Source: Candidatus Thermoplasmatota archaeon
GTDB taxonomy: Archaea; Thermoplasmatota; E2; UBA202; DSCA01
DNA: 34,353 nucleotides
Assembly: GCA_034660695.1 (NCBI GenBank)
Contig: JAYEJS010000073.1
Coordinates: forward strand, 1-34,353
Reading direction: 5' to 3'
The translations under genes were made by a program, and so were the position numbers. The notes under the pieces are model-generated. The model did not search any database and was not told the origin of the DNA. It was given only the letters and a program-made list of their open reading frames with translations. The stretch's first letter is position 1, and each line of letters starts with the position of its first letter. This document shows, one piece after another, positions 3,460 through 26,221 of the stretch.

Positions 3460-3563
3460 ATAAAATTATACAACAATGTCTATAAAATAGCCTTAAAGTG
3501 TGATTTTGTATTGTATGCGGTACTTTGTTTAACACTTAAGGAGAAAGCATCCTTTCGCTCTTA

Positions 3564-3669: not shown

Positions 3670-3708
3670 ATGAACAAGAAAATAGAAAGTTTTTTGTTAT
3701 CTGTGTAA
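3670..3708 (+). pseudogene. Frameshifted signal-peptide start of the Hint/M28 protein
   Basis: From the ATG at 3670 the frame reads MNKKIESFLLSV and meets a TAA at 3706-3708. If the six-T run at 3690-3695 had seven T, the frame would read MNKKIESFFVICVMAAGVIL and continue into the long frame at 3708. That would be a textbook signal peptide: lysines, a hydrophobic core, then a small-residue region ending near AEGASA. The gene therefore looks disrupted by a one-base loss in a homopolymer, which may be real, phase-variable or a sequencing error. Confidence 0.6.
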
Positions 3709-5807
3709 TGGCAGCAGGTGTAATCCTGCCATCAATACCGTTTGATGCCGAGGGCGCATCGGCACCAAGCGAGCCGTTGGATCCCTGTTTCCTTGCGGGG
3801 ACACAAATCACAATGGCAGACGGTTCCCACAAAAACATCAAGCAGGTGGAAGTGGGCGATATGGTGAAGTCCTTTGACAATGGCTCAATTGTTATCGGCG
3901 AGGTAACGGAAGTATATTCTCATAACCCTAGCGAAATGCCGGAATACTACATGGTAATCAATGATAAACTTCGGGTAACCCCAAACCACATCATTTATGT
4001 CAACAATGAGTGGATACCTGCCAGAAATATCACTGAAGGAGATGAACTGCTTGGCGAGCACGATGAGACTGTAATTGTCACCTCTGTAGAACGAGTGCAG
4101 GAGCAGGCTCCCACATACAATCTTGAAATTCAGAGCTATCATACCTTTTTCGCGGATGGCATATTAGTGCATAATGCAAAGGCTCCGGCAGAGCCGATAG
4201 AGCCGATTAATAATCCTCCGTACACACCAAGCAAGCCTTCAGGACCTACCTCTGTTAAAACTCCTCCTGCGCGTTTCCTTAGCGGAACGGCGATACGGAT
4301 GGCGGATGGCTCACACAAGAACATTAAACACATCGAGCAGGGCGATGTGGTTGTTTCATACAACAAAGGTCAAGTGGTGAACGGAGAGGTTATCGATGTG
4401 TATGAGCATACTCCGGAGGAAATGGGAGATTATTATGTGGTTATCAATGATAAAATTCGGGTGACACCAAACCATTTCCTTTATGTGAGTGGGAGATGGA
4501 TACCCGCCAAGCAGGTAAAAATCGGCGATGAGCTAATTGGTGAAAACAAGGAGGTTGTTATAGTCACCTCTGTGGAAAAAGTGTGGGAACAGGTACCCAC
4601 ATACAATCTTGAAGTCGACATATATCACACCTTTTTTGCAGATGGAATATTGGTACACAATGCGAAAGCAGGCTATACGTATTCGACATCAACCACCGAC
4701 CCAGATGGTGATAACATCTATTATTTGTTTGACTGGGGCGATGGCACTGACTCTGGATGGCGTGGGCCATATAGCTCAGGCTCCACAGGATATGCGTATC
4801 ATCTATGGAACACTCCTGGCACCTATCAGGTGAAGGCAAAGGCAAAGGATGAACATGGTGCGGTAAGCAGCTGGTCATCATCTTTAACAGTGGTGGTTAA
4901 CGCTGCTCCTGTTGCAGACTTTACTTATTCGCCATCATCTCCAACCACCCAAGATACAATCCAATTCACTGATCAATCAACAGATGAGGATGGATATATT
5001 GTCTCTTGGTCATGGAACTTTGGAGATGGAGCGACATCCAGCATACAAAATCCTACACACCAGTACCCAGATGATGAAACATATACTGTTACATTAACTG
5101 TTGAAGATAATGATGGTGCTACGAGCTCTGCATCGAAAGATGTAGCGGTTCAAAACGTTGCTCCAACTGCAAATTTCGACTATTCCCCATTGGATCCAAC
5201 AACTGAGAGCATAATACAGTTTACAGATAAATCATCAGACTCAGATGGAGATATAACAGCATGGCAATGGAACTTTGGAGACGGGTCTACTACTTCTACA
5301 CAACAAAATCCAAGCCATGTTTATACATCTGCTGGCAGTTACAGTGTAACTCTAACAGTTACAGATAATGATGGCGCAACCGCCAGCAAAACAAAAACAA
5401 TAACCGTTATTACTGAGAAAGAAATAGATATAGGTTTCATAAGGAGTGTAACAGCTCAACTCGCCTACTATATATTTTCATATTCTCGGGGGAGGTACTT
5501 TGGAACAGAGGGAGAACAAGCCACATCAATATATATTCAAAGTAACATGACTTGGATAGGTCTCGAAAGCGCCTATCGTGATCCCATTGATAAAGATTCA
5601 TTAAATGTAAGGCCAGAGGTTACAAATTATTACCTAAACGTAACAGCCACAAATAAAACTGATCCTGATGATATCCATTGGGTAAATAGAACTTTGGGAT
5701 CAAGTTTTCCATTCCCACCTCTTGTACCAGGAACACATGATTCAGGATGGGTTGGTATGTCAGACGAATATCAAGAAGGAATGATTTGGTTGCTAGAGGA
5801 AAACTAG
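3708..5807 (+). CDS. Secreted protein with two tandem Hint domains and three PKD domains; N-terminal part of an M28 peptidase
   Basis: The 699-residue open frame contains two 130-residue Hint (hedgehog/intein) domains at residues 27-156 (3786-4175) and 189-318 (4272-4661). Each has an N-terminal FL.GT..MADGSHKNIK block, a VTPNH block with the TxxH motif, and a C-terminal FFADGILVHN ending in the His-Asn of intein block G. The first starts with Cys27. The second has Arg189 (cgt) there, so N-terminal acyl shift should be impossible. Both are followed by Ala rather than Cys/Ser/Thr, as in intein-like (BIL type B) domains that cleave rather than splice. Three PKD-like domains follow (about 320-570, with WDGD/NFGDG cores). 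The frame ends at a TAG (5805-5807), but the same frame continues as an M28 peptidase. The mature product would act outside the cell. Confidence 0.8.
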   Translation: MAAGVILPSIPFDAEGASAPSEPLDPCFLAGTQITMADGSHKNIKQVEVGDMVKSFDNGSIVIGEVTEVYSHNPSEMPEYYMVINDKLRVTPNHIIYVNNEWIPARNITEGDELLGEHDETVIVTSVERVQEQAPTYNLEIQSYHTFFADGILVHNAKAPAEPIEPINNPPYTPSKPSGPTSVKTPPARFLSGTAIRMADGSHKNIKHIEQGDVVVSYNKGQVVNGEVIDVYEHTPEEMGDYYVVINDKIRVTPNHFLYVSGRWIPAKQVKIGDELIGENKEVVIVTSVEKVWEQVPTYNLEVDIYHTFFADGILVHNAKAGYTYSTSTTDPDGDNIYYLFDWGDGTDSGWRGPYSSGSTGYAYHLWNTPGTYQVKAKAKDEHGAVSSWSSSLTVVVNAAPVADFTYSPSSPTTQDTIQFTDQSTDEDGYIVSWSWNFGDGATSSIQNPTHQYPDDETYTVTLTVEDNDGATSSASKDVAVQNVAPTANFDYSPLDPTTESIIQFTDKSSDSDGDITAWQWNFGDGSTTSTQQNPSHVYTSAGSYSVTLTVTDNDGATASKTKTITVITEKEIDIGFIRSVTAQLAYYIFSYSRGRYFGTEGEQATSIYIQSNMTWIGLESAYRDPIDKDSLNVRPEVTNYYLNVTATNKTDPDDIHWVNRTLGSSFPFPPLVPGTHDSGWVGMSDEYQEGMIWLLEEN

Positions 5808-7340
5808 GAGAAACCCTATGATTGGGTTAAGGAGATAGATTTACACACGGGAATGGCTGGAGTTATTTTAATGGATTGTTGGAACGATACATTCTTTATG
5901 GCTGGAACACGGGTTCAAAAAGGTGGAGTCTCTGTAACTGGAGCAGATGGAAAATGGATAAAGCAGTACCTAAATAACCCAAATTACAAGGTGAAGGCAA
6001 GGATATATATGGAAGATACTTCCTCATCAGTAGAAAGCTATAACGTCATGGGGGAAATTCCTGGGATAGATAACTCAAAAGTAATAATCGTCGGAGCACA
6101 TTATGATGGATTATGGAATCAAGCAGCAATAGACGATGCTATCGGAACTGGCATCATGTTAGGAATAGCGAAATATTTCAAGGAAAACAACATAGTTCCT
6201 AAATATAAATTAAAGTTTGTCGCTTTTGCTGGAGAAGAGTGGCAAAGAAGAGGATCTAAGGATTATAAAAAAGAATATCTAGAAACATCTGAAGGAACAA
6301 CAACTTCAACAGAAAATGTAGAATATATGATTAACATTGATATGGTAGCCCACAATACTCTATCACCGCTAAATATGACATCTAATGACGCATCTGTAGT
6401 GAGCAAGGTAAACGAAATAGCACAGCAAATAAATTATGAAGGAAAGTCAGGCTATGAATTCGATTCCATTTACGGCACTCCAGAAGCAACTGATGCTGAG
6501 ACATTTGTAGATTATACAACAGTTATTGATTTTGGGAAAGAGCTATATAAAGGATATCATAGAGATGGGAATAACCACAACAAAGGCGATGTAATGGGCA
6601 ATATAGATGATGACGACTTAAGTGCTACTGCAGAACTAACATTGGAAGTTGTTAAATGTTATGCAGTGGAAAACCCGCCAAATGTGCCATCAAATCCATC
6701 TCCAGCCAATGGTGCTACTGGTATTGGTATCAACACAGATATAAGCTGGACTGGAGGTGATCCAGATCCAGGCGATACAGTAACATATGATGTATACTTT
6801 GGTACTGATTCAACTCCTGATTCCACTGAACTGGTATCTTCTGGACAAACAACCACAGTATATGATCCAGGAACTTTAAGCTATTCAACTACCTACTACT
6901 GGCAGATAGTGGCAAAAGATAACTGGGGTGAAGTTAGTGGAGGAGAGATATGGCATTTCACTACAGAAGGAACACCAAATAGCCCACCATATACTCCTTC
7001 TAATCCATCTCCAGCAGATGGCGCAACTGTACCCATAAATGATGGATCTTCTCAGCAACAAGCATCAACAACAGCATCGGAGCTAGCTGCATTAAGCCCT
7101 GTAAATACATTGAAGTTGAGCTGGACTGGTGGAGATCCAGATGGAGATGTTGTTTACTACGATGTCTACTTCGAAGCAAATGACAATACGCCTGATGTAA
7201 AAATTGCATCTGATATAACATCAACAAGTTGTTATATAAGCAATTTACAAGCTGGCACAACTTATTACTGGAAAGTGGTTGCGACAGATGAGCATGGTGC
7301 AACTACATATGGACAAGTATGGCATTTTTACACTGTTTAG
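5808..7340 (+). CDS. M28-family zinc metallopeptidase with C-terminal fibronectin-like domains; continues the preceding frame past a TAG
   Basis: The frame is continuous with the Hint-PKD part: after the TAG it reads EKPYDWVKEIDLHTGMAGV and onwards. A separate start at the ATG 5853 is possible but has no clear ribosome binding site. Peptidase M28 features are visible: GAHYDG (metal His), DDAIGTG (bridging Asp), AGEEWQRRGS (catalytic and metal Glu), INIDMVAHN (metal Asp) and a C-terminal His-rich segment (YHRDGNNHNKGD). Two beta-sandwich repeats of fibronectin type III character follow, each with TTYYW.IVAKD / WHFT motifs, separated by a PSNPSPA-type linker. A restored protein from 3670 to 7340 would be about 1,220 residues, an aminopeptidase that matures outside the cell. 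It converges on the PQQ-repeat gene 45 bases away. Confidence 0.8.
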   Translation, partial: EKPYDWVKEIDLHTGMAGVILMDCWNDTFFMAGTRVQKGGVSVTGADGKWIKQYLNNPNYKVKARIYMEDTSSSVESYNVMGEIPGIDNSKVIIVGAHYDGLWNQAAIDDAIGTGIMLGIAKYFKENNIVPKYKLKFVAFAGEEWQRRGSKDYKKEYLETSEGTTTSTENVEYMINIDMVAHNTLSPLNMTSNDASVVSKVNEIAQQINYEGKSGYEFDSIYGTPEATDAETFVDYTTVIDFGKELYKGYHRDGNNHNKGDVMGNIDDDDLSATAELTLEVVKCYAVENPPNVPSNPSPANGATGIGINTDISWTGGDPDPGDTVTYDVYFGTDSTPDSTELVSSGQTTTVYDPGTLSYSTTYYWQIVAKDNWGEVSGGEIWHFTTEGTPNSPPYTPSNPSPADGATVPINDGSSQQQASTTASELAALSPVNTLKLSWTGGDPDGDVVYYDVYFEANDNTPDVKIASDITSTSCYISNLQAGTTYYWKVVATDEHGATTYGQVWHFYTV

Positions 7341-7385: not shown

Positions 7386-8939
7386 CTATATCTGGGAAAG
7401 ACCAAGGTTAAATATGAATAAATCCATTTCTTGTACAGGAGTAGATCCATCAATGTAATATGCTTTTGCTTTTAGAGTATGTTTCCAAAACGCTTTTTCG
7501 TTTAATACAATTTCAAATGGTGCAGCTGTATCTACTCCTACCAGGCCATCATCCAGATAGAACTCAACTTTGCTCACATTTTCTTCATTAAATGCATAGA
7601 TGTTAACGCTTATCTTTCCAATTATTATTGTGTTTCCATATTTTGTTGGCATGATTTCTCTGTCGTTGAAATAAAGAAAACCTTGCTTCGGCCTTTCTAT
7701 TTTTATTCCACCGATAGCATATAATCCACCGACTAATTCACCATCAGATGTAGTGTTGTGTCCCCCAACATATATCGTTCCGTCTTTTCCTATTGCAGTA
7801 GAGGAGGAAATGCCACTGGTTGCTACCAGTATTCTCCATTTTTCTGTTCCATCCGGATTTATAGCATATAATATTCCTCTTTGGAAAAGAGGATAAGAAT
7901 AGTTTTCTGCACCAACATATATCGTTCCATCTCCTACTATAGATGGAGACTCATGTATTACTCCAGTTTTAAATTTCCATTTTAACGTGCCATTAGGATT
8001 TATAGCATATAAAAAACCATTAGATAGTCCAAAGACTGTTCCCATATATATTGTTCCATCTTCTGCTATCGCTGGAGCTTCTTCCGCATCTTCTGGCAGT
8101 AGAACTTTCCACTTCAATGTTCCATTCGGATTTATTGCATACAGATATCCATCCCATGATCCTATGTATATTGTTCCGTCATCTGCTATTGCAGGAGATG
8201 TTCTTACTTCTGCTCCTGTTTCAAACTTCCATTTCAATGTACCATTTGGATTTATTGCATATAAATGATAGTCATGCGATCCAATATATATTGTTCCATC
8301 GTCACCAATAGCTGGAGAAGAATAAATCCAAAAGCCAGTATCAAAATGCCACTTTTCTGTTCCATCAGGGGATATTGCATAAATTCTGCCTTTGTCACAT
8401 CCTGGTCCAACTATGCTAAAATAAATTGTCCCATCTTTTCCTATAGCAGGAGATGAATGTATTCTACATATTATATCGTGACCATCGTGACAATAAAATT
8501 TCCATTTTAATGTACCATCTGGATTTATTGCATATAAATAGCCATCATCACAACCCACATATATTGTTCCATCTTTTCCTATAGCTGGAGAAGATATTAT
8601 CCAATCTGCTTCAAATTTCCATTTTAATGTACCATCTGGATTTATTGCATATAAGTGCCCTTTAAAAATAGGTGCTCCCCATGCTCCAACATATATTGTT
8701 CCATCTTCTGCTATAGCTGGGGAGGAATCTACCCATTCCCCTGTTTCAAATTTCCACTTTAGTGTGCCGGGATTGCCGCTTGTATCATACTCACTCCTTC
8801 CTGTATGCTTTACATCATGGCAAAACATTGGCCAAGGTGAATCTTGTAAGCCATCATTATTATCAAAAGATAAAGGGAAAGCTATCGAAGCATTTACTAT
8901 GACAAATATAAGAGCAACTGCAATGCATATTCTTTTCAT
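7386..8939 (-). CDS. Secreted PQQ-like beta-propeller repeat protein
   Basis: This 517-residue protein begins with a signal peptide (MKRICIAVALIFVIVNASIA). It carries about nine repeats of the form SSPAI.KDGTIYVG..DGYLYAINPDGTLKWKF, the PQQ/YncE-like beta-propeller pattern (about residues 50-430). The C-terminal 85 residues form an immunoglobulin-like beta-sandwich (VSKVEFYLDDGLVGVDTAAP), a type common as a cell-surface or carbohydrate-binding module. No catalytic quinoprotein residues are recognised, so a binding or scaffold role is likely. Repeats are also very similar at the DNA level. It is divergent from the beta-helix gene, and the shared 118-base gap holds both promoters. Confidence 0.85.
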   Translation of the reverse strand: MKRICIAVALIFVIVNASIAFPLSFDNNDGLQDSPWPMFCHDVKHTGRSEYDTSGNPGTLKWKFETGEWVDSSPAIAEDGTIYVGAWGAPIFKGHLYAINPDGTLKWKFEADWIISSPAIGKDGTIYVGCDDGYLYAINPDGTLKWKFYCHDGHDIICRIHSSPAIGKDGTIYFSIVGPGCDKGRIYAISPDGTEKWHFDTGFWIYSSPAIGDDGTIYIGSHDYHLYAINPNGTLKWKFETGAEVRTSPAIADDGTIYIGSWDGYLYAINPNGTLKWKVLLPEDAEEAPAIAEDGTIYMGTVFGLSNGFLYAINPNGTLKWKFKTGVIHESPSIVGDGTIYVGAENYSYPLFQRGILYAINPDGTEKWRILVATSGISSSTAIGKDGTIYVGGHNTTSDGELVGGLYAIGGIKIERPKQGFLYFNDREIMPTKYGNTIIIGKISVNIYAFNEENVSKVEFYLDDGLVGVDTAAPFEIVLNEKAFWKHTLKAKAYYIDGSTPVQEMDLFIFNLGLSQI

Positions 8940-9057
8940 ATCAATTTCTTCATTATTAATAGATTCTTGGCATAAATAACTAACGACGTCAATAAAAATT
9001 TCAGGGGAATATATCCTTTTTCCTAAACAAATTTAAGGACAATGAGGATATAAAACC

Positions 9058-10251
9058 ATGAAAAAGGTTGCAGCGTTGTTGATTTCATTCCTTTTATTCA
9101 TTCCATTTGCATCTATCGATGGAGGCAACGTTGCTTCAAACATGAATACAAACAATACTCTTTATGTTGGGGGCTCTGGTCCAAACAACTATACAAAGAT
9201 ACAGGATGCAATAAATGATGCAAGTAATGGTGATACAATTTTTGTTTATTCAGGCATTTACCCCGAGCATGTAAGAATATACAAACCAATAAATTTGATT
9301 GGAGAAAATGAAAATACCACGATAATAGATGGAATGAATGAAACAGATGTAACGGTCTTCAGCATAACAGCAAATCATGTCAATTTCAGTCACTTTACAA
9401 TAAGAAATATCTCTGGTGGGAAATGGACATTCGGTATAAAAATAGAAGATGGAAATCATATTGAAATCTCAAATTGCATAATAAAAGAGTGCGATGGAAT
9501 CGGGATTTTTTCAACGGATAACATTTCCATAGAAAACTGCAATATATCTCAGAACTATTGGGGGCTAGATATCAGAGGAGGTAATAACATTGAAATAGGA
9601 AATTGCACAATATCGTACAACATTGGTAAAAAAGATGATAATGGATGGCTAATAGGGGGAGATGGAATATTTGCAGAAGGAGTTAGCGAAGGTCCTATAT
9701 CAAATATTCGCATAACCAATTGTTCCATTTACCACAACGGAGACGGAGTAGAAGTATTCGGTGCATCCAATGTATTTATTTCAAACTGTGACATAAACAC
9801 TTACAATTTCAGCGGGATTAACATTGGCCCATCGATTTTCAACTGCACTATTCTAGACTGCAATATCTCTCATGGATATGTAGGAATTGATATGGGATCG
9901 GTGGATGCAAAAATTGGGAACTGCAGTATAACTGGAAATTTTTGGGGAATAAGGATGGGATCTACATCTAAGGATGCAAAAGTTTTTATACGATATAACA
10001 ATATTGAAAATAATAGTTATGGAATTTATGTATGCACAGGTATTTCTAATAGTTATATCGATTACAATAATATCTATAATAATGGCATAGGAATGAAAGC
10101 AGAATTTTCTGTATGCAATGCCCGCAATAATTATTGGGGCAGTCCATTAGGGCCGAGCCATTTGTTCGGGCTGAGGGGAGATAGAATACAAACAACACTG
10201 GCGAAGGTATTTTATTTCCCATGGCTCAAGGAAGAATGTAAAATAGGCTAA
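9058..10251 (+). CDS. Secreted right-handed parallel beta-helix protein (NosD-like)
   Basis: This 397-residue protein has a signal peptide (MKKVAALLISFLLFIPFASI). It is followed by LYVGGSGPNNYTKIQDAINDA and GDTIFVYSGIYPEHVRI, the usual start of archaeal surface beta-helix proteins. Then come repeated turns of the form I.I.NC.I..N..GI, with Asn-Cys steps that stack in parallel beta-helices. It ends in RNNYWGSPLGPS, a hallmark of the NosD / periplasmic copper-binding family. Many Asn-X-Ser/Thr sites suggest N-glycosylation. A role in polysaccharide binding or as an adhesin is possible; none is proven. A gagga sequence at 9047-9051 supports the ATG at 9058. Confidence 0.85.
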   Translation: MKKVAALLISFLLFIPFASIDGGNVASNMNTNNTLYVGGSGPNNYTKIQDAINDASNGDTIFVYSGIYPEHVRIYKPINLIGENENTTIIDGMNETDVTVFSITANHVNFSHFTIRNISGGKWTFGIKIEDGNHIEISNCIIKECDGIGIFSTDNISIENCNISQNYWGLDIRGGNNIEIGNCTISYNIGKKDDNGWLIGGDGIFAEGVSEGPISNIRITNCSIYHNGDGVEVFGASNVFISNCDINTYNFSGINIGPSIFNCTILDCNISHGYVGIDMGSVDAKIGNCSITGNFWGIRMGSTSKDAKVFIRYNNIENNSYGIYVCTGISNSYIDYNNIYNNGIGMKAEFSVCNARNNYWGSPLGPSHLFGLRGDRIQTTLAKVFYFPWLKEECKIG

Positions 10252-10261
10252 GGTGAGGACA

Positions 10262-10417
10262 TTGTTAAAGAAAGAAAACCGCAAACTCTTTTTTCTTTTA
10301 TTAGCAGCTGCAATACTTCTCTTGCCCTTTTTCCCTTTTCTTACTCTTGCCTTTCCGTTGTGGATTACTGCTGAAATCCTAATTTTTATAGGGTTGATTA
10401 AGCTCATAAAAAAATAG
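10262..10417 (+). CDS. Small hydrophobic membrane protein, TTG start
   Basis: A 51-residue frame begins with TTG at 10262, preceded at the right spacing by aggtgagg (10251-10258). It encodes LLKKENRKLFFLLLAAAILL, then a Pro/Phe turn, a second hydrophobic stretch and a terminal KLIKK. This gives two short membrane segments flanked by lysines. It starts 10 bases after the beta-helix gene and may share its transcript. No family is recognised. The ribosome binding site, hydrophobic pattern and basic ends favour a real gene. Confidence 0.5.
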   Translation: MLKKENRKLFFLLLAAAILLLPFFPFLTLAFPLWITAEILIFIGLIKLIKK

Positions 10418-10474
10418 GGAGCATTAATTCTTGCATTGTGATGTTTGGATTTTTTCTACAATCTTAAAGCGAAG

Positions 10475-10509
10475 ACCATCTCAAACCGAACCCGGAAGTT
10501 AAACCCGCA
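10475..10509 (+). rRNA. 5S rRNA-like fragment (loop B/C region)
   Basis: The segment ccgaacccggaagttaaacc is nearly identical to the most conserved part of 5S rRNA (helix III 3' side, loop B and start of helix II). The preceding ccatctc also matches, with a 3-base insertion. The 5' strand of helix III and convincing helices I, II and IV/V are not found around it. It therefore looks like a decayed copy or a borrowed fragment rather than a working 5S gene. Confidence 0.4.
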
Positions 10510-10520
10510 CTTTTAGGTAT

Positions 10521-10558
10521 GGAAGATGAGCATTTTATTTCATCTTTCCAATTTTTCC
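10521..10558 (+). terminator. Hairpin followed by T-run
   Basis: GGAAGATGA (10521-10529) pairs with TCATCTTTCC (10540-10549) with one bulged T, and aatttttcc follows. It resembles an intrinsic-type terminator behind the small membrane gene and the 5S-like fragment. Confidence 0.4.
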
Positions 10559-10640
10559 TCCCATTTCATAACCTCTTTTTGAGAGAATGGTAGCACAATA
10601 AAAGTAATGTAGTTAAACAGAGCAAACTAGAATAAAGCAG

Positions 10641-10650
10641 TTTTTTATAC
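10641..10650 (+). promoter_or_regulatory. TATA box of the ACT-domain gene
   Basis: ttttttatac lies 22-31 bases upstream of the ATG at 10672, with no Shine-Dalgarno sequence. This is the leaderless arrangement. Confidence 0.5.
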
Positions 10651-10671
10651 CTCGCTTTAATATACAATATC

Positions 10672-11172
10672 ATGTGGAGAAAGATATATGCCTTATTCAA
10701 AAAATTTCCAGCACAGCAAAAAGTGGTAGAACTTCTCCTTACTTATGGTTTGCGGGTAGAAAATAATACTCTTTTTTGTGGAAAAATCGAATTATCGTAT
10801 TCCAAGGTTGCAAGGGCAGTAGGAGTTGATAGGAGAGCAGTGGTAAGCACAGTCGAGGCGGTATGGAAAAACAAGGATTTGAGAAAAATTTTTTTGATGC
10901 TTCAGCCAACGTGCCATTTAAAAGAAGTGGCACCACAAATGAACTGGGGAGTTGTGGAAATAATACCCGTGGACGCCAGTATGCCGGGGATACTTGCTTC
11001 CGTTTCTTCAATTATTGCAAAGGCAAAAATAAGCATACGCCAGGCGATAGTGGATGATTACAAACTTTCAAAAGAGCCCAGGCTTTTTATTGTCACAGAA
11101 AAACCGTTGTCCGGAAACATACTTTCAAAAATAAGGACAAGCAAGGGAGTAAAAGGGGTTGTTGCATACTGA
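10672..11172 (+). CDS. Predicted regulator of amino acid metabolism with ACT domain (COG2150 type)
   Basis: This 166-residue protein has an N-terminal helix-turn-helix-like part (residues 1-80, with LSYSKVARAVGVDRRAVVST as recognition region). Its C-terminal ACT domain (residues 90-166) includes NWGVVEIIPVDASMPGILA and ends SKGVKGVVAY. This matches the archaeal family annotated as amino acid metabolism regulators containing ACT. An amino acid probably binds the ACT domain and alters DNA binding, but neither ligand nor targets are shown here. The nearest amino acid genes are trpB2 and the SerA-like gene, neither adjacent. Confidence 0.85.
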   Translation: MWRKIYALFKKFPAQQKVVELLLTYGLRVENNTLFCGKIELSYSKVARAVGVDRRAVVSTVEAVWKNKDLRKIFLMLQPTCHLKEVAPQMNWGVVEIIPVDASMPGILASVSSIIAKAKISIRQAIVDDYKLSKEPRLFIVTEKPLSGNILSKIRTSKGVKGVVAY

Positions 11173-11222
11173 CCGAGAATCTTTAAAAAGGGATAGCACT
11201 TTTGGATTTGGAGGCGACATAA

Positions 11223-13193
11223 ATGGATAGAAAAAAAGCGATTTTAGGAACCCTGGCAATCGTGATAGTGTTATTGGGCAGCACCCAGTTGGCAGGCATG
11301 CAATTGGGCGAAACAAGCAGCAAAAACACATGTGATGAATCTTCAATAGAGGATTTGACATATAGCATGAATTTTTCCCCACCAACCATTACCGAGGGAA
11401 AGAGATATGCATCCGTCATGGTAAAAGAATCTGATTCTTATACAATAAATCCAGGGGCGCCATCAATGCCTATTGCTGTAAAAACTTTCACATTTCCTTT
11501 CGAGACAAAAATATTGGATATTGACTGCAAAATTTTAAACACTTCAGTATATGAACTGCCACAAAAGATTGCACCGGCCACCGGACATGTTATAGCAGAT
11601 AGTGCTTCACGTCCTATCACAATGGAAGAAAATAAAGAAGTTTACATGTCAAGCGATCCATATCCAGAAAAGTGGTTTAATTATGGGACTACTGTTGGAC
11701 TCAAGGATGGAAAGCATGTTATATTTTTGACGGTTGAACTACATCCAGTGAGATATTTTCCTTTGTCTGATACCATAGAATCTGTAAATAATGCCGAAAT
11801 AAAGGTTACGTTTGAAAAAAGGCAGCAGCAGTCTACTTTTAATAATGCGCGTGACTTGCTCATCATTGCACCCGACAAATTTTCGGATGCTTTACAGCCG
11901 TTGATAGAGCATAAAGAAAACCATGGTGTAAAAATAATATTTGCTTCAACCGAGAGCATATATCAGACATCCAGTGGAAGAGATGATGCTGAAAAAATCA
12001 AATATTTCATTAAAGATGCTATAGAGGGTTTGGGAATAAAATATGTAATGCTCGTTGGCGGAATGAAAGGGCAGCGTCTTAATTCATGGTATGTGCCGGT
12101 AAGATATTCTCATCTGGATGACAACTCGAGCTGGGAGGCAAGTTACATCAGCGACCTTTATTATGCTGATATTTACAAATATGAGGACGGAATGCCTGTT
12201 TTTGATGACTGGGATTCAAACAGCAACGACATTTTTGCGGAATGGAATATCAACAACAAAGATGTTCTTGACTTGTCTCCTGACGTTTATGTTGGCCGTC
12301 TTCCGTGTAGAAATACGTTTGAAGTGAATCTGGTGGTTGACAGGATAATAAAATACGAGACTTCAACATATGGACAGGACTGGTTCAAGAGGATGGTCGT
12401 TATTGGGGGAGACTCATTCCCTGACCAAGAAGTGGGAACTGATTACATCGAAGGGCAGGTAGAAACAGACCATGCCTTAAGTTTCATGGATGGATTTGAG
12501 CATGTCAGGATATATGTGAAAGGGGGCGACATCGAATTCACGCCAGAAAATACAGGGAGTGCTCTTTCCGAGGGAGAAGGATTTGTTTATTTCAGTGGTC
12601 ATGGAAACCCGGCATCCTGGGCGACCCATCCACACAATGATTTTGATACGTGGATAGATTTTGGTTTGAAAAACATTAGAAAACTCGATAATGGCGAAAA
12701 GTTGCCCGTACTGATTGTTGGCGGTTGTCACAACTCTCAGTTCAACGTGAGTGTTTTTCGGTTGCTGACAGAGGGAATTTGGGCATACTACCTGGGCGAG
12801 ATGACACCGGAATGCTGGGGATGGTTGTTTACGAGGGGCATGAATGGCGGCTCTATTGCCACTATTGGTAACACGGGTCTCGGATACGGGTCAGTGGGGG
12901 ACGGCCCGGTTGATGAAATCCCGGACAGCGTACCGGACGGCATCCCAGACTGCATACAGTATCTGGGTGGATGGATAGAAACGCACTTCTTCAAAGTCTA
13001 TAACCATTGTGGCAAGGACATTCTGGGCGAAACATGGGGCACCACAGTAACTGACTATGTGAATACATTCCCGATAGACTGGTCAATGGATTGGTCAGAA
13101 AGCCCATATACCTCTGAACTGGTGGATTGCAAAACGGCACAGGAATGGGTTCTCTTCGGCGATCCAAGCCTGAAAATTGGGGGATACGCATAG
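11223..13193 (+). CDS. Secreted C25 (gingipain-like) cysteine protease
   Basis: This 656-residue protein has a signal or anchor segment (residues 5-26). An N-terminal propeptide-like region (to about 200) precedes a C25 catalytic domain starting at DLLIIAPDKFSDALQPLIEH. The caspase-like dyad is visible: His460 in FVYFSGHGNPASW and Cys502 in LIVGGCHNSQFN. It ends ..EWVLFGDPSLKIGG, the usual C-terminus of C25 catalytic domains, with no trailing sorting domain. C25 enzymes cut extracellular proteins, mostly after Arg or Lys. GGAGGCGAC upstream of the ATG at 11223 may serve as ribosome binding site. It is one of three secreted proteases in the window. Confidence 0.88.
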   Translation: MDRKKAILGTLAIVIVLLGSTQLAGMQLGETSSKNTCDESSIEDLTYSMNFSPPTITEGKRYASVMVKESDSYTINPGAPSMPIAVKTFTFPFETKILDIDCKILNTSVYELPQKIAPATGHVIADSASRPITMEENKEVYMSSDPYPEKWFNYGTTVGLKDGKHVIFLTVELHPVRYFPLSDTIESVNNAEIKVTFEKRQQQSTFNNARDLLIIAPDKFSDALQPLIEHKENHGVKIIFASTESIYQTSSGRDDAEKIKYFIKDAIEGLGIKYVMLVGGMKGQRLNSWYVPVRYSHLDDNSSWEASYISDLYYADIYKYEDGMPVFDDWDSNSNDIFAEWNINNKDVLDLSPDVYVGRLPCRNTFEVNLVVDRIIKYETSTYGQDWFKRMVVIGGDSFPDQEVGTDYIEGQVETDHALSFMDGFEHVRIYVKGGDIEFTPENTGSALSEGEGFVYFSGHGNPASWATHPHNDFDTWIDFGLKNIRKLDNGEKLPVLIVGGCHNSQFNVSVFRLLTEGIWAYYLGEMTPECWGWLFTRGMNGGSIATIGNTGLGYGSVGDGPVDEIPDSVPDGIPDCIQYLGGWIETHFFKVYNHCGKDILGETWGTTVTDYVNTFPIDWSMDWSESPYTSELVDCKTAQEWVLFGDPSLKIGGYA

Positions 13194-24538: not shown

Positions 24539-26221
24539 TTATCTTATTATCACAAACGGCCCAAGTATCAAGAAATCTGCAGTTTTAGTTGCATCTTTTA
24601 TTGTTGCTGTGATAGTCCCTGGCCCAAGTCCGAAAACAGGTATCTTTAGTATTTCCTCGCTTCCTGGGGCCAAGTCGGCTATTGTCCCACTAGGATTTCC
24701 ACCAACAAACAAGAGGCCGCTTAACTCAATTGACCATTCCAGATTGGATAGGTTATCCTTCCCGTTGTTTCTAACAACAACTGTAACCCCTAGGCCACCA
24801 GATAACTCCAGCTCTACTTGCATCACGAGCGGCACCGTTAAGCCCTTCATGCAAAAATTGGCTGTTCCAGGCCATGGAATACCCTCACGCTCATAAAGGT
24901 CTAACCATTGGTTGTCTTTACGATAATAGCTCTCACCAGGATGAGCAGATGAGCCGACAATGACGCCCGGAGATTGAGAACCTAGCAAGACAGAAACCTC
25001 AGAAGTTCTATCATATGGAAGCCCGCCTCCGAGAAGTTGCGTGTAAATATAGAAATCATCATTTGCCGTAAGTCTAACAGGAGTATCCAAGTCTATAGTA
25101 TGAAATCCCGTATGATTTATTATTCCATGTTTCGTTGATAGTTCTTCTTGTAGTTCTCCATTCTCGAAACTATCATATATTATGATATGATAAAACACAT
25201 TGTCTTCAGCAGTGTAGAAGCTTACTGCAGTGAGTAGCTCATTATCTCTAGCTGTAAAAGCATTGAATGCTTCAGCGCAATCAGTCAATGTGTCACGCCA
25301 GCCGTGATAATCATGATAATAGATTCGATTGTATTTTAACGGTTCAACATTTTGAAAAGAAATTGCGCCCATTTCAGGGTTATGGCAGCAATGTTTATCG
25401 TAGTATGATATCCAGAAGTAGCCGTCTTCACCCCAACCGCTTCCCCAGCTGTTCTTGCAGAGCCATGCTCCAGGAAGGGGTGCAGGTGTCACCTTGTTAT
25501 CATCCCAGCCGACAATAGCAACTGCATGGTTTGGATCATATGAATTATCGGGGGGTTGATAATGAGCATAGTTAGATATAAAGGAACCGCTAAAACACAG
25601 GGAAGTACCCATTACACCATGTTCCATAATTGCATGTTTAATCGTGTTGATGTTGCTGAGATCATCTCCAATAGTATACCATTCAATATCCGTGACATAA
25701 TAATAGTGATAGTTAGAGTTGTATCGTGCAGGAGAATCATCATACCAGTTATCATCCAACTCGGTATCATCGTTTGCATCAGAGCTATAGACTGCTCCCT
25801 CTCCTCTGGAGAGATATGCAGAAGTTACCCTGTAATCACCCCCCATGTGTACAGTCAATCCGCCTCCTGTGGGTGGATTGGTATCGTCATTATTATGTTG
25901 GTTGAATCCATTCCACCAGTCGAGATGGTATTCCGCCAAATTAGGTTCCTCAGTCTCTCCAGCTGCTTCCCAATTGCCGGTCACGAGTAAATTTCCTTCA
26001 ATAGCAGCCATCGCACCGTGCGTCCAGCAGGTGCCCCCTGTTTGGCTTTTGATCGAGGTTACATAATTAATGCCATCAATATCTCTTAAATCAAAAGAAA
26101 TTGGCGGATCTTCCATTGATAATTCGAAGGAATCATTCGGAAAGTCAGATAGTGCTGCAGGCATAAAAAAGATAACAGCAATTAACAAAAATAATCCGGT
26201 TTTGTGCCAAACTAATTTCAT
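24539..26221 (-). CDS. Secreted papain-like (C1) cysteine protease
   Basis: This 560-residue protein has a signal peptide (residues 6-25, [17 protein letters not shown]) and a short propeptide. Its C1 domain has [17 protein letters not shown] (oxyanion Gln60, nucleophile Cys65), [11 protein letters not shown] (His232) and [20 protein letters not shown] (Asn257). Residues 300-450 are a lectin-like beta domain found after C1 domains in archaeal and bacterial secreted proteases. The last 100 residues form a beta-sandwich ([20 protein letters not shown]) of the NEW3/CARDB kind. It belongs with the C25 and M28 enzymes in extracellular protein degradation and is convergent with serA. Confidence 0.88.

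What the first reader, a model, noticed from the sequence alone, without database searches (positions are those of the whole stretch)
3786..4661. Tandem Hint (intein-like) domains in a secreted M28 peptidase, the second without Cys1
Two 130-residue Hint domains with the same block layout precede PKD and M28 domains. The first keeps the nucleophile Cys27; the second has Arg at that place (cgt against tgt). Both end in His-Asn followed by Ala, so splicing looks blocked but C-terminal cleavage by Asn cyclisation remains possible. This suggests self-processing that releases or matures an extracellular peptidase, with one domain degenerated or specialised. I know of no described system with this architecture.
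Basis: partly seen in the sequence, partly recalled or inferred. Interest (0 to 1): 0.75.

Follow-up and report, generated by a model that had tools for sequence, protein, structure and literature searches.

The report
Two self-cutting domains, broken archaeal gene
An uncultured archaeon carries a gene for a secreted protein-cutting enzyme with two intein-like self-cutting domains, the second lodged inside another domain and missing its key cysteine; such domains in rows are not new, and here the gene is broken by a frameshift and a stop codon.

Summary
The two Hint domains are real: Pfam, PDB profiles and an AlphaFold model place them in the Hint superfamily, closest to bacterial intein-like (BIL) domains. 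Cys27, Arg189, both His-Asn ends and both +1 Ala are as stated. (1) M28 is not in the same open frame: an in-frame TAG (5805-5807) splits the peptidase fold itself, and TAG is an ordinary stop here. (2) The signal-peptide frame is shifted (T6 against T7 in the genome's only paralogue, which has its own TAG inside its Hint). (3) Hint2 is nested inside an Ig/PKD-like repeat of which the same genome has at least 12 uninterrupted copies, i.e. it sits like an intein. (4) Tandem Hint domains are common: 38 of 193 Hint ORFs collected, up to nine in a row in a relative. Arg at position 1 recurs in none of 208 domains. Best reading: a type-A-BIL-like Hint pair at the N terminus of a secreted archaeal peptidase, an old duplication long under purifying selection, now in a decaying gene; Arg189 is probably one lesion of that decay. 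Hint2 could at most cut after Asn318. New variant of a known kind.

The parts
3670..3707 (+). Original start region (MNKKIESF...) of the signal peptide, now out of frame with the rest: T-run 3690-3695 has 6 T, 7 in the paralogue
3708..5807 (+). ORF with Hint1, Hint2 and PKD repeats, ends in TAG
3786..4175 (+). Hint1: Cys27 ... TPNH ... His-Asn156, +1 Ala; type A BIL-like
4176..4271 (+). 32-residue Pro-rich linker AKAPAEPIEPINNPPYTPSKPSGPTSVKTPPA, whose second part (4209-4271) is the first part of an Ig/PKD-like repeat
4272..4661 (+). Hint2: Arg189 (cgt) in place of Cys1, TPNH kept, His-Asn318, +1 Ala; nested inside the Ig/PKD-like repeat
4662..4901 (+). Rest of the split Ig/PKD-like repeat (AKAGYTYSTSTTDPDGD...); at least 12 uninterrupted paralogues in the same genome; PDB relative 4xed
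4905..5408 (+). Two further PKD domains
5436..5804 (+). N-terminal part of the M28 peptidase fold
5805..5807 (+). In-frame TAG that splits the peptidase; aligned with Trp in the closest homologue
5808..6660 (+). Catalytic part of the M28 peptidase; metal-ligand motifs (HYD, IDDA, GEE, NID, HRDGNNH) present
   Evidence: ligand roles from knowledge of family M28
6669..7340 (+). C-terminal Ig/fn3-like domains of the same frame

Best explanation
This was a secreted, self-processing M28 peptidase of a Thermoplasmatota archaeon with the order signal peptide - Hint1 - linker - Hint2 nested in an Ig/PKD-like repeat - PKD repeats - M28 - Ig repeats. Both Hint domains are BIL-like (type A: His-Asn end, no +1 nucleophile). 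Hint1, directly behind the signal peptide, would act as an N-terminal pro-domain: Asn156 cyclises and cuts the Asn-Ala bond, with possible low-level ligation through the Cys27 thioester. Hint2 arose by an old duplication and came to lie in the loop between the first two strands of the repeat; without Cys1 it can neither make the thioester nor splice, and could only cut after Asn318. In this genome the gene is now decaying (signal-peptide frameshift, TAG in the peptidase), and the Cys-to-Arg change, one transition away, is most likely part of that decay. Shown: domain identity, residues, nesting, lesions, old duplication under purifying selection. Inferred: any cleavage activity, secretion, order of events.
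For: Hint identity. H1, H2 and the paralogue form one clade (100/95). H1 against H2: dN/dS about 0.1 with dS near saturation; H1 against the paralogue 0.14, so both domains were long constrained. Nesting: the flanks NNPPYTPSKPSGPTSVKTPPA and AKAGYTYSTSTTDPDGD are two parts of a repeat that is uninterrupted elsewhere in the same genome (PNKPDRPSGPTSGRVGTSYTYSSSTIDPDGD and others); the model (pLDDT 91) puts a strand on either side of the Hint. Decay: T6 against T7; TAG inside the peptidase with homologues open across it; the sister gene also carries a TAG in its Hint; TAG ends 53 of 257 long ORFs and there is no PylS over cut-off, and no CUA tRNA among the tRNAs found. Arg1 is unique among 208 domains. 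BIL chemistry: PMC4031507, PMC7765530.
Against: No orthologue with the same Hint-Hint-PKD-M28 order exists in 79 other genomes of the class or in the phylum sample, so the age of the Arg change cannot be dated. Apart from position 1 Hint2 is well preserved, so it was not decaying for long. The assembly is a MAG; read support for the lesions could not be checked.
Confidence: 0.64

Rival explanations
1. The gene is functional and Hint2 is a specialised Cys1-less domain that only performs C-terminal cleavage (or only serves as a folded spacer).
For: All other block residues of Hint2 are kept, dN/dS about 0.1; C-terminal cleavage by Asn cyclisation can occur without the N-terminal steps (PMC4031507).
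Against: Arg1 recurs nowhere; two further lesions in the same gene and one in its paralogue; cutting after Asn318 would break the Ig/PKD-like repeat in which Hint2 sits.
Confidence: 0.13
2. Hint2 was a splicing-competent, intein-like insertion in the Ig/PKD-like repeat; type A BIL splicing removed it and restored the repeat, until Cys1 was lost.
For: Insertion inside a domain, with the uninterrupted form in many paralogues, is what inteins do; the BIL2 domain of Tetrahymena is described as interposed between independently folded domains instead (PMC9200820). Type A BILs can ligate flanks without a +1 nucleophile (PMC4031507).
Against: No homologue with Cys1 at this site was found; joining would leave about four extra residues in the loop; no homing endonuclease.
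Confidence: 0.15
3. The frameshift, the TAG codons and Arg189 are assembly or base-calling artefacts or minority variants of a MAG, and the gene is intact in most cells.
For: A homopolymer length and single-base changes are the kinds of error seen in MAGs; long identical stretches with the paralogue could confuse assembly.
Against: Several independent single changes at separate places in two contigs would all have to be errors; the Arg codon and the window's TAG lie in sequence that the paralogue does not have, so a chimera with it does not explain them.
Confidence: 0.1
4. TAG is read through or recoded, so the peptidase is made whole.
For: Both TAGs lie where relatives have Trp (Trp in the closest M28 homologue; Trp in Hint1 for the paralogue).
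Against: TAG is a common stop here and in-frame ORF pairs across TAG are not in clear excess; no PylS; no CUA anticodon among the tRNAs found. TGG to TAG is a single-step nonsense change. The signal-peptide frameshift would remain.
Confidence: 0.04

Closest known systems
Type A bacterial intein-like (BIL) domains (Amitai 2003, Dassa 2004; structure 2lwy, C. thermocellum)
   Same: Size, blocks, His-Asn end, non-nucleophilic +1 residue; 2lwy is among the best PDB matches
   Different: Archaeal; Hint2 lacks Cys1 and lies inside a domain
BUBL loci of Tetrahymena (two BIL domains in one polyubiquitin-like precursor; 6y75, 6tmm)
   Same: More than one BIL in one precursor; best fold match of Hint2
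   Different: There ubiquitin-like domains flank active BILs that keep Cys1; here a 32-residue linker and a Cys1-less second domain
HINT domains of polymorphic toxins (PT-HINT, PF07591)
   Same: Best Pfam match; a constant N-terminal part that ends at the Hint is joined to different C-terminal bodies in the two paralogues
   Different: Hint stands right behind the signal peptide, and no toxin domain follows
Class 2 inteins (KlbA type, no Cys1)
   Same: No N-terminal nucleophile
   Different: They have Ala1, Cys+1 and Ser at the penultimate place; Hint2 has Arg1, Ala+1 and His

Membership tests
Hint superfamily | Profile match over blocks A, B, F, G and Hint fold | tested here: met
   for both domains; fold for Hint2
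Type A BIL | His-Asn at the C-terminal end | tested here: met
   both domains
Type A BIL | No Cys/Ser/Thr at +1 | tested here: met
   Ala in both
Type A BIL | Cys (or Ser) at position 1 for the N-terminal thioester: Hint1 | tested here: met
   Cys27
Type A BIL | Cys (or Ser) at position 1 for the N-terminal thioester: Hint2 | tested here: not met
   Arg189; so Hint2 is called BIL-like, not a BIL
Type A BIL | Autocleavage / low-level splicing in vitro | not testable with these tools
   needs expressed protein
Inteins, class 1 | Cys/Ser1 and Cys/Ser/Thr+1 | tested here: not met
   +1 Ala in both
Inteins, class 2 | Ala1, Cys+1, Ser at penultimate place | tested here: not met
   Hint2 has Arg1, Ala+1, His, definition
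Inteins, class 3 | Cys at block F:4 | tested here: not met
   Hint2 has no cysteine at all
Polymorphic toxin | Hint directly before a C-terminal toxin domain | tested here: not met
   PKD and M28 follow
Peptidase M28 | Pfam M28 match and metal-ligand motifs in one open frame | tested here: inconclusive
   match 5.9e-24 and motifs present in the downstream frame, but the fold is split by TAG

The most novel reading that the evidence does not exclude
Hint2 is the remnant of a BIL-type element that invaded a loop of an extracellular Ig/PKD-like domain and once spliced itself out there without a +1 nucleophile, i.e. an intein-like insertion in a secreted archaeal protein, in a lineage whose relatives line up as many as nine Hint domains behind a subtilase.
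Probability: 0.15. Interest if true: 0.6.

Novelty: new variant of a known kind. Interest (0 to 1): 0.38.

Why it matters
BIL domains are described between the domains of bacterial and ciliate proteins; a BIL-like domain nested inside an extracellular repeat, with uninterrupted copies of that repeat in the same genome, would link BILs and true inteins. The class survey shows that tandem Hint domains are frequent in secreted-type proteins of Thermoplasmatota, which no paper found in the searched library describes. The window's own gene, however, is broken, so it is evidence of history rather than of a working system.

Tried and rejected
Pyrrolysine or other recoding of TAG: PylS search gave only sub-threshold matches, TAG is a common stop, no CUA tRNA among those found (four intron-containing tRNA candidates were not read by ARAGORN). 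Polymorphic toxin: no toxin domain. Defence system: PADLOC gives only weak homing-endonuclease/Hint similarity. Recurrence of Arg1: none in 208 domains; the apparent Cys1-less domains of actinobacteria and phages mostly have Ser or Thr there. A mixed alignment of Hint and PKD rows misaligned the repeats and was replaced. Literature searches for tandem inteins and for Hint domains in Thermoplasmata found nothing.

Full report
What is there. The ORF 3708-5807 encodes two Hint domains of 130 residues each, at 3786-4175 and 4272-4661, joined by 32 residues. Each alone matches Pfam PT-HINT, Hint and Intein_splicing, and NCBIfam intein_Cterm above its cut-off. A profile of the domain and its relatives finds BIL domains (2lwy; 6y75/6tmm from Tetrahymena BUBL) and inteins among the best PDB sequences. 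Position 1 is Cys27 in Hint1 and Arg189 in Hint2; block B (TPNH) and the terminal His-Asn are kept in both; +1 is Ala in both. Hint2 has no cysteine.

What was missed. First, the peptidase. The frame after the PKD repeats continues into an M28 peptidase and Ig-like domains, but a TAG at 5805-5807 interrupts it. Homologues in the class are open across the equivalent place, the stretch before the TAG belongs to the same peptidase proteins, and in the closest of them Trp stands at the TAG position. TAG ends 53 of 257 long ORFs in 366 kb of the genome and PylS is absent above cut-off, so it is taken as a stop. Second, the signal peptide. The genome has one paralogue (contig C137), 90% identical in DNA through the Hint. 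It starts MNKKIESFFVICVMAAGV...; in the window a run of T has 6 instead of 7 letters, so the same start soon runs into a stop. The paralogue in turn has a TAG in its Hint at a Trp codon. Both genes are thus broken as assembled.

Nesting. Hint2 is not between domains. Its flanks, NNPPYTPSKPSGPTSVKTPPA and AKAGYTYSTSTTDPDGDNIYYLFDWGDG, are two parts of one Ig/PKD-like repeat. A search of the own genome with the second part gave 19 further places, of which at least 12 show the first part running on without interruption, e.g. ...PPNKPDRPSGPTSGRVGTSYTYSSSTIDPDGDQIYYWFDWGDG. An AlphaFold model of the segment (mean pLDDT 91) has a strand just before and just after the Hint and matches both BIL/intein structures and 4xed, the PKD domain of a Thermoplasmatales M14 peptidase. 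Hint1 by contrast follows the signal peptide after about ten residues.

History. Hint1, Hint2 and the C137 domain form a supported clade. Hint1 and Hint2 differ at near-saturated synonymous sites but have dN/dS about 0.1, so the pair is old and both were constrained. The paralogues share a stretch of about 170 identical bases, which suggests gene conversion (inference), and their similarity fades right after His-Asn-Ala-Lys-Ala-Pro: the 5' region, signal peptide and Hint are common, the bodies differ.

Comparison set. A search of the class found relatives in 18 of 80 genomes, none with this architecture; in a phylum sample 17 of 390. Named relatives are Thermoplasmata / Candidatus Thermoplasmatota MAGs. 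Of 193 Hint ORFs collected, 38 have two or more domains. A Thermoplasmata relative (L044, G028) has the same order signal-type N terminus - Hint - Pro-rich linker - Hint with HNAKAP after the first, both with Cys1. Of 208 complete domains 194 have Cys1; those without it mostly have Ser or Thr; Arg is found only in the window.

Mechanism. Type A BILs make an N-terminal thioester, cut at the C terminus by Asn cyclisation, and can ligate the flanks by attack of the freed amino group (PMC4031507; PMC7765530). Hint1 has every residue for this. Hint2 lacks the thioester step, so only C-terminal cleavage is open to it, which would cut its host repeat. None of this could be tested here.

Verdict. The most likely account is a BIL-like Hint pair in a once secreted peptidase gene now in decay, with Arg189 part of it. 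The nesting and the tandem arrays of the class are the parts worth following.

Noticed in passing
L041:4611-8618 (G025:C62; JAGGZU010000116.1, Thermoplasmata archaeon AUK212): Nine Hint domains back to back, all with Cys1 and His-Asn, separated by 1-5 residues, after a subtilase (S8) domain in an ORF of at least 2927 aa; pairwise identity 29-69%, several subfamilies mixed, so not an assembly duplication.
   Followed up: partly
L042:233-8521 (G025:C15) and L045:2-1990 (G052:C6): Further multi-Hint proteins: three intact plus two degenerate domains, and three in a row.
   Followed up: partly
L003:2654-3817, minus strand (G000:C137): Only paralogue in the own genome: shared upstream region, signal peptide and Hint, then a different PKD-containing body; TAG in the Hint at 3473-3475; about 170 bp identical to the window copy.
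   Followed up: yes
L053, L055, L056 (G046, G047, G035): Hint domains with Cys1 but without His-Asn (ending FADGFLVRSD and similar), the reverse of the window's Hint2.
   Followed up: no
L202-L206, L227 (IMG/VR contigs): Phage-type contigs with tandem Hint domains; in L202, L203, L205 and L206 the first has Thr at position 1, in L227 three intact domains follow a degenerate one.
   Followed up: no
window 7386-13193 and 24539-26221: Other genes of surface or secreted type: PQQ-type beta-propeller, NosD-like beta-helix, C25 (gingipain-like) peptidase with propeptide, and a C1 papain-type peptidase with lectin-like domain.
   Followed up: no
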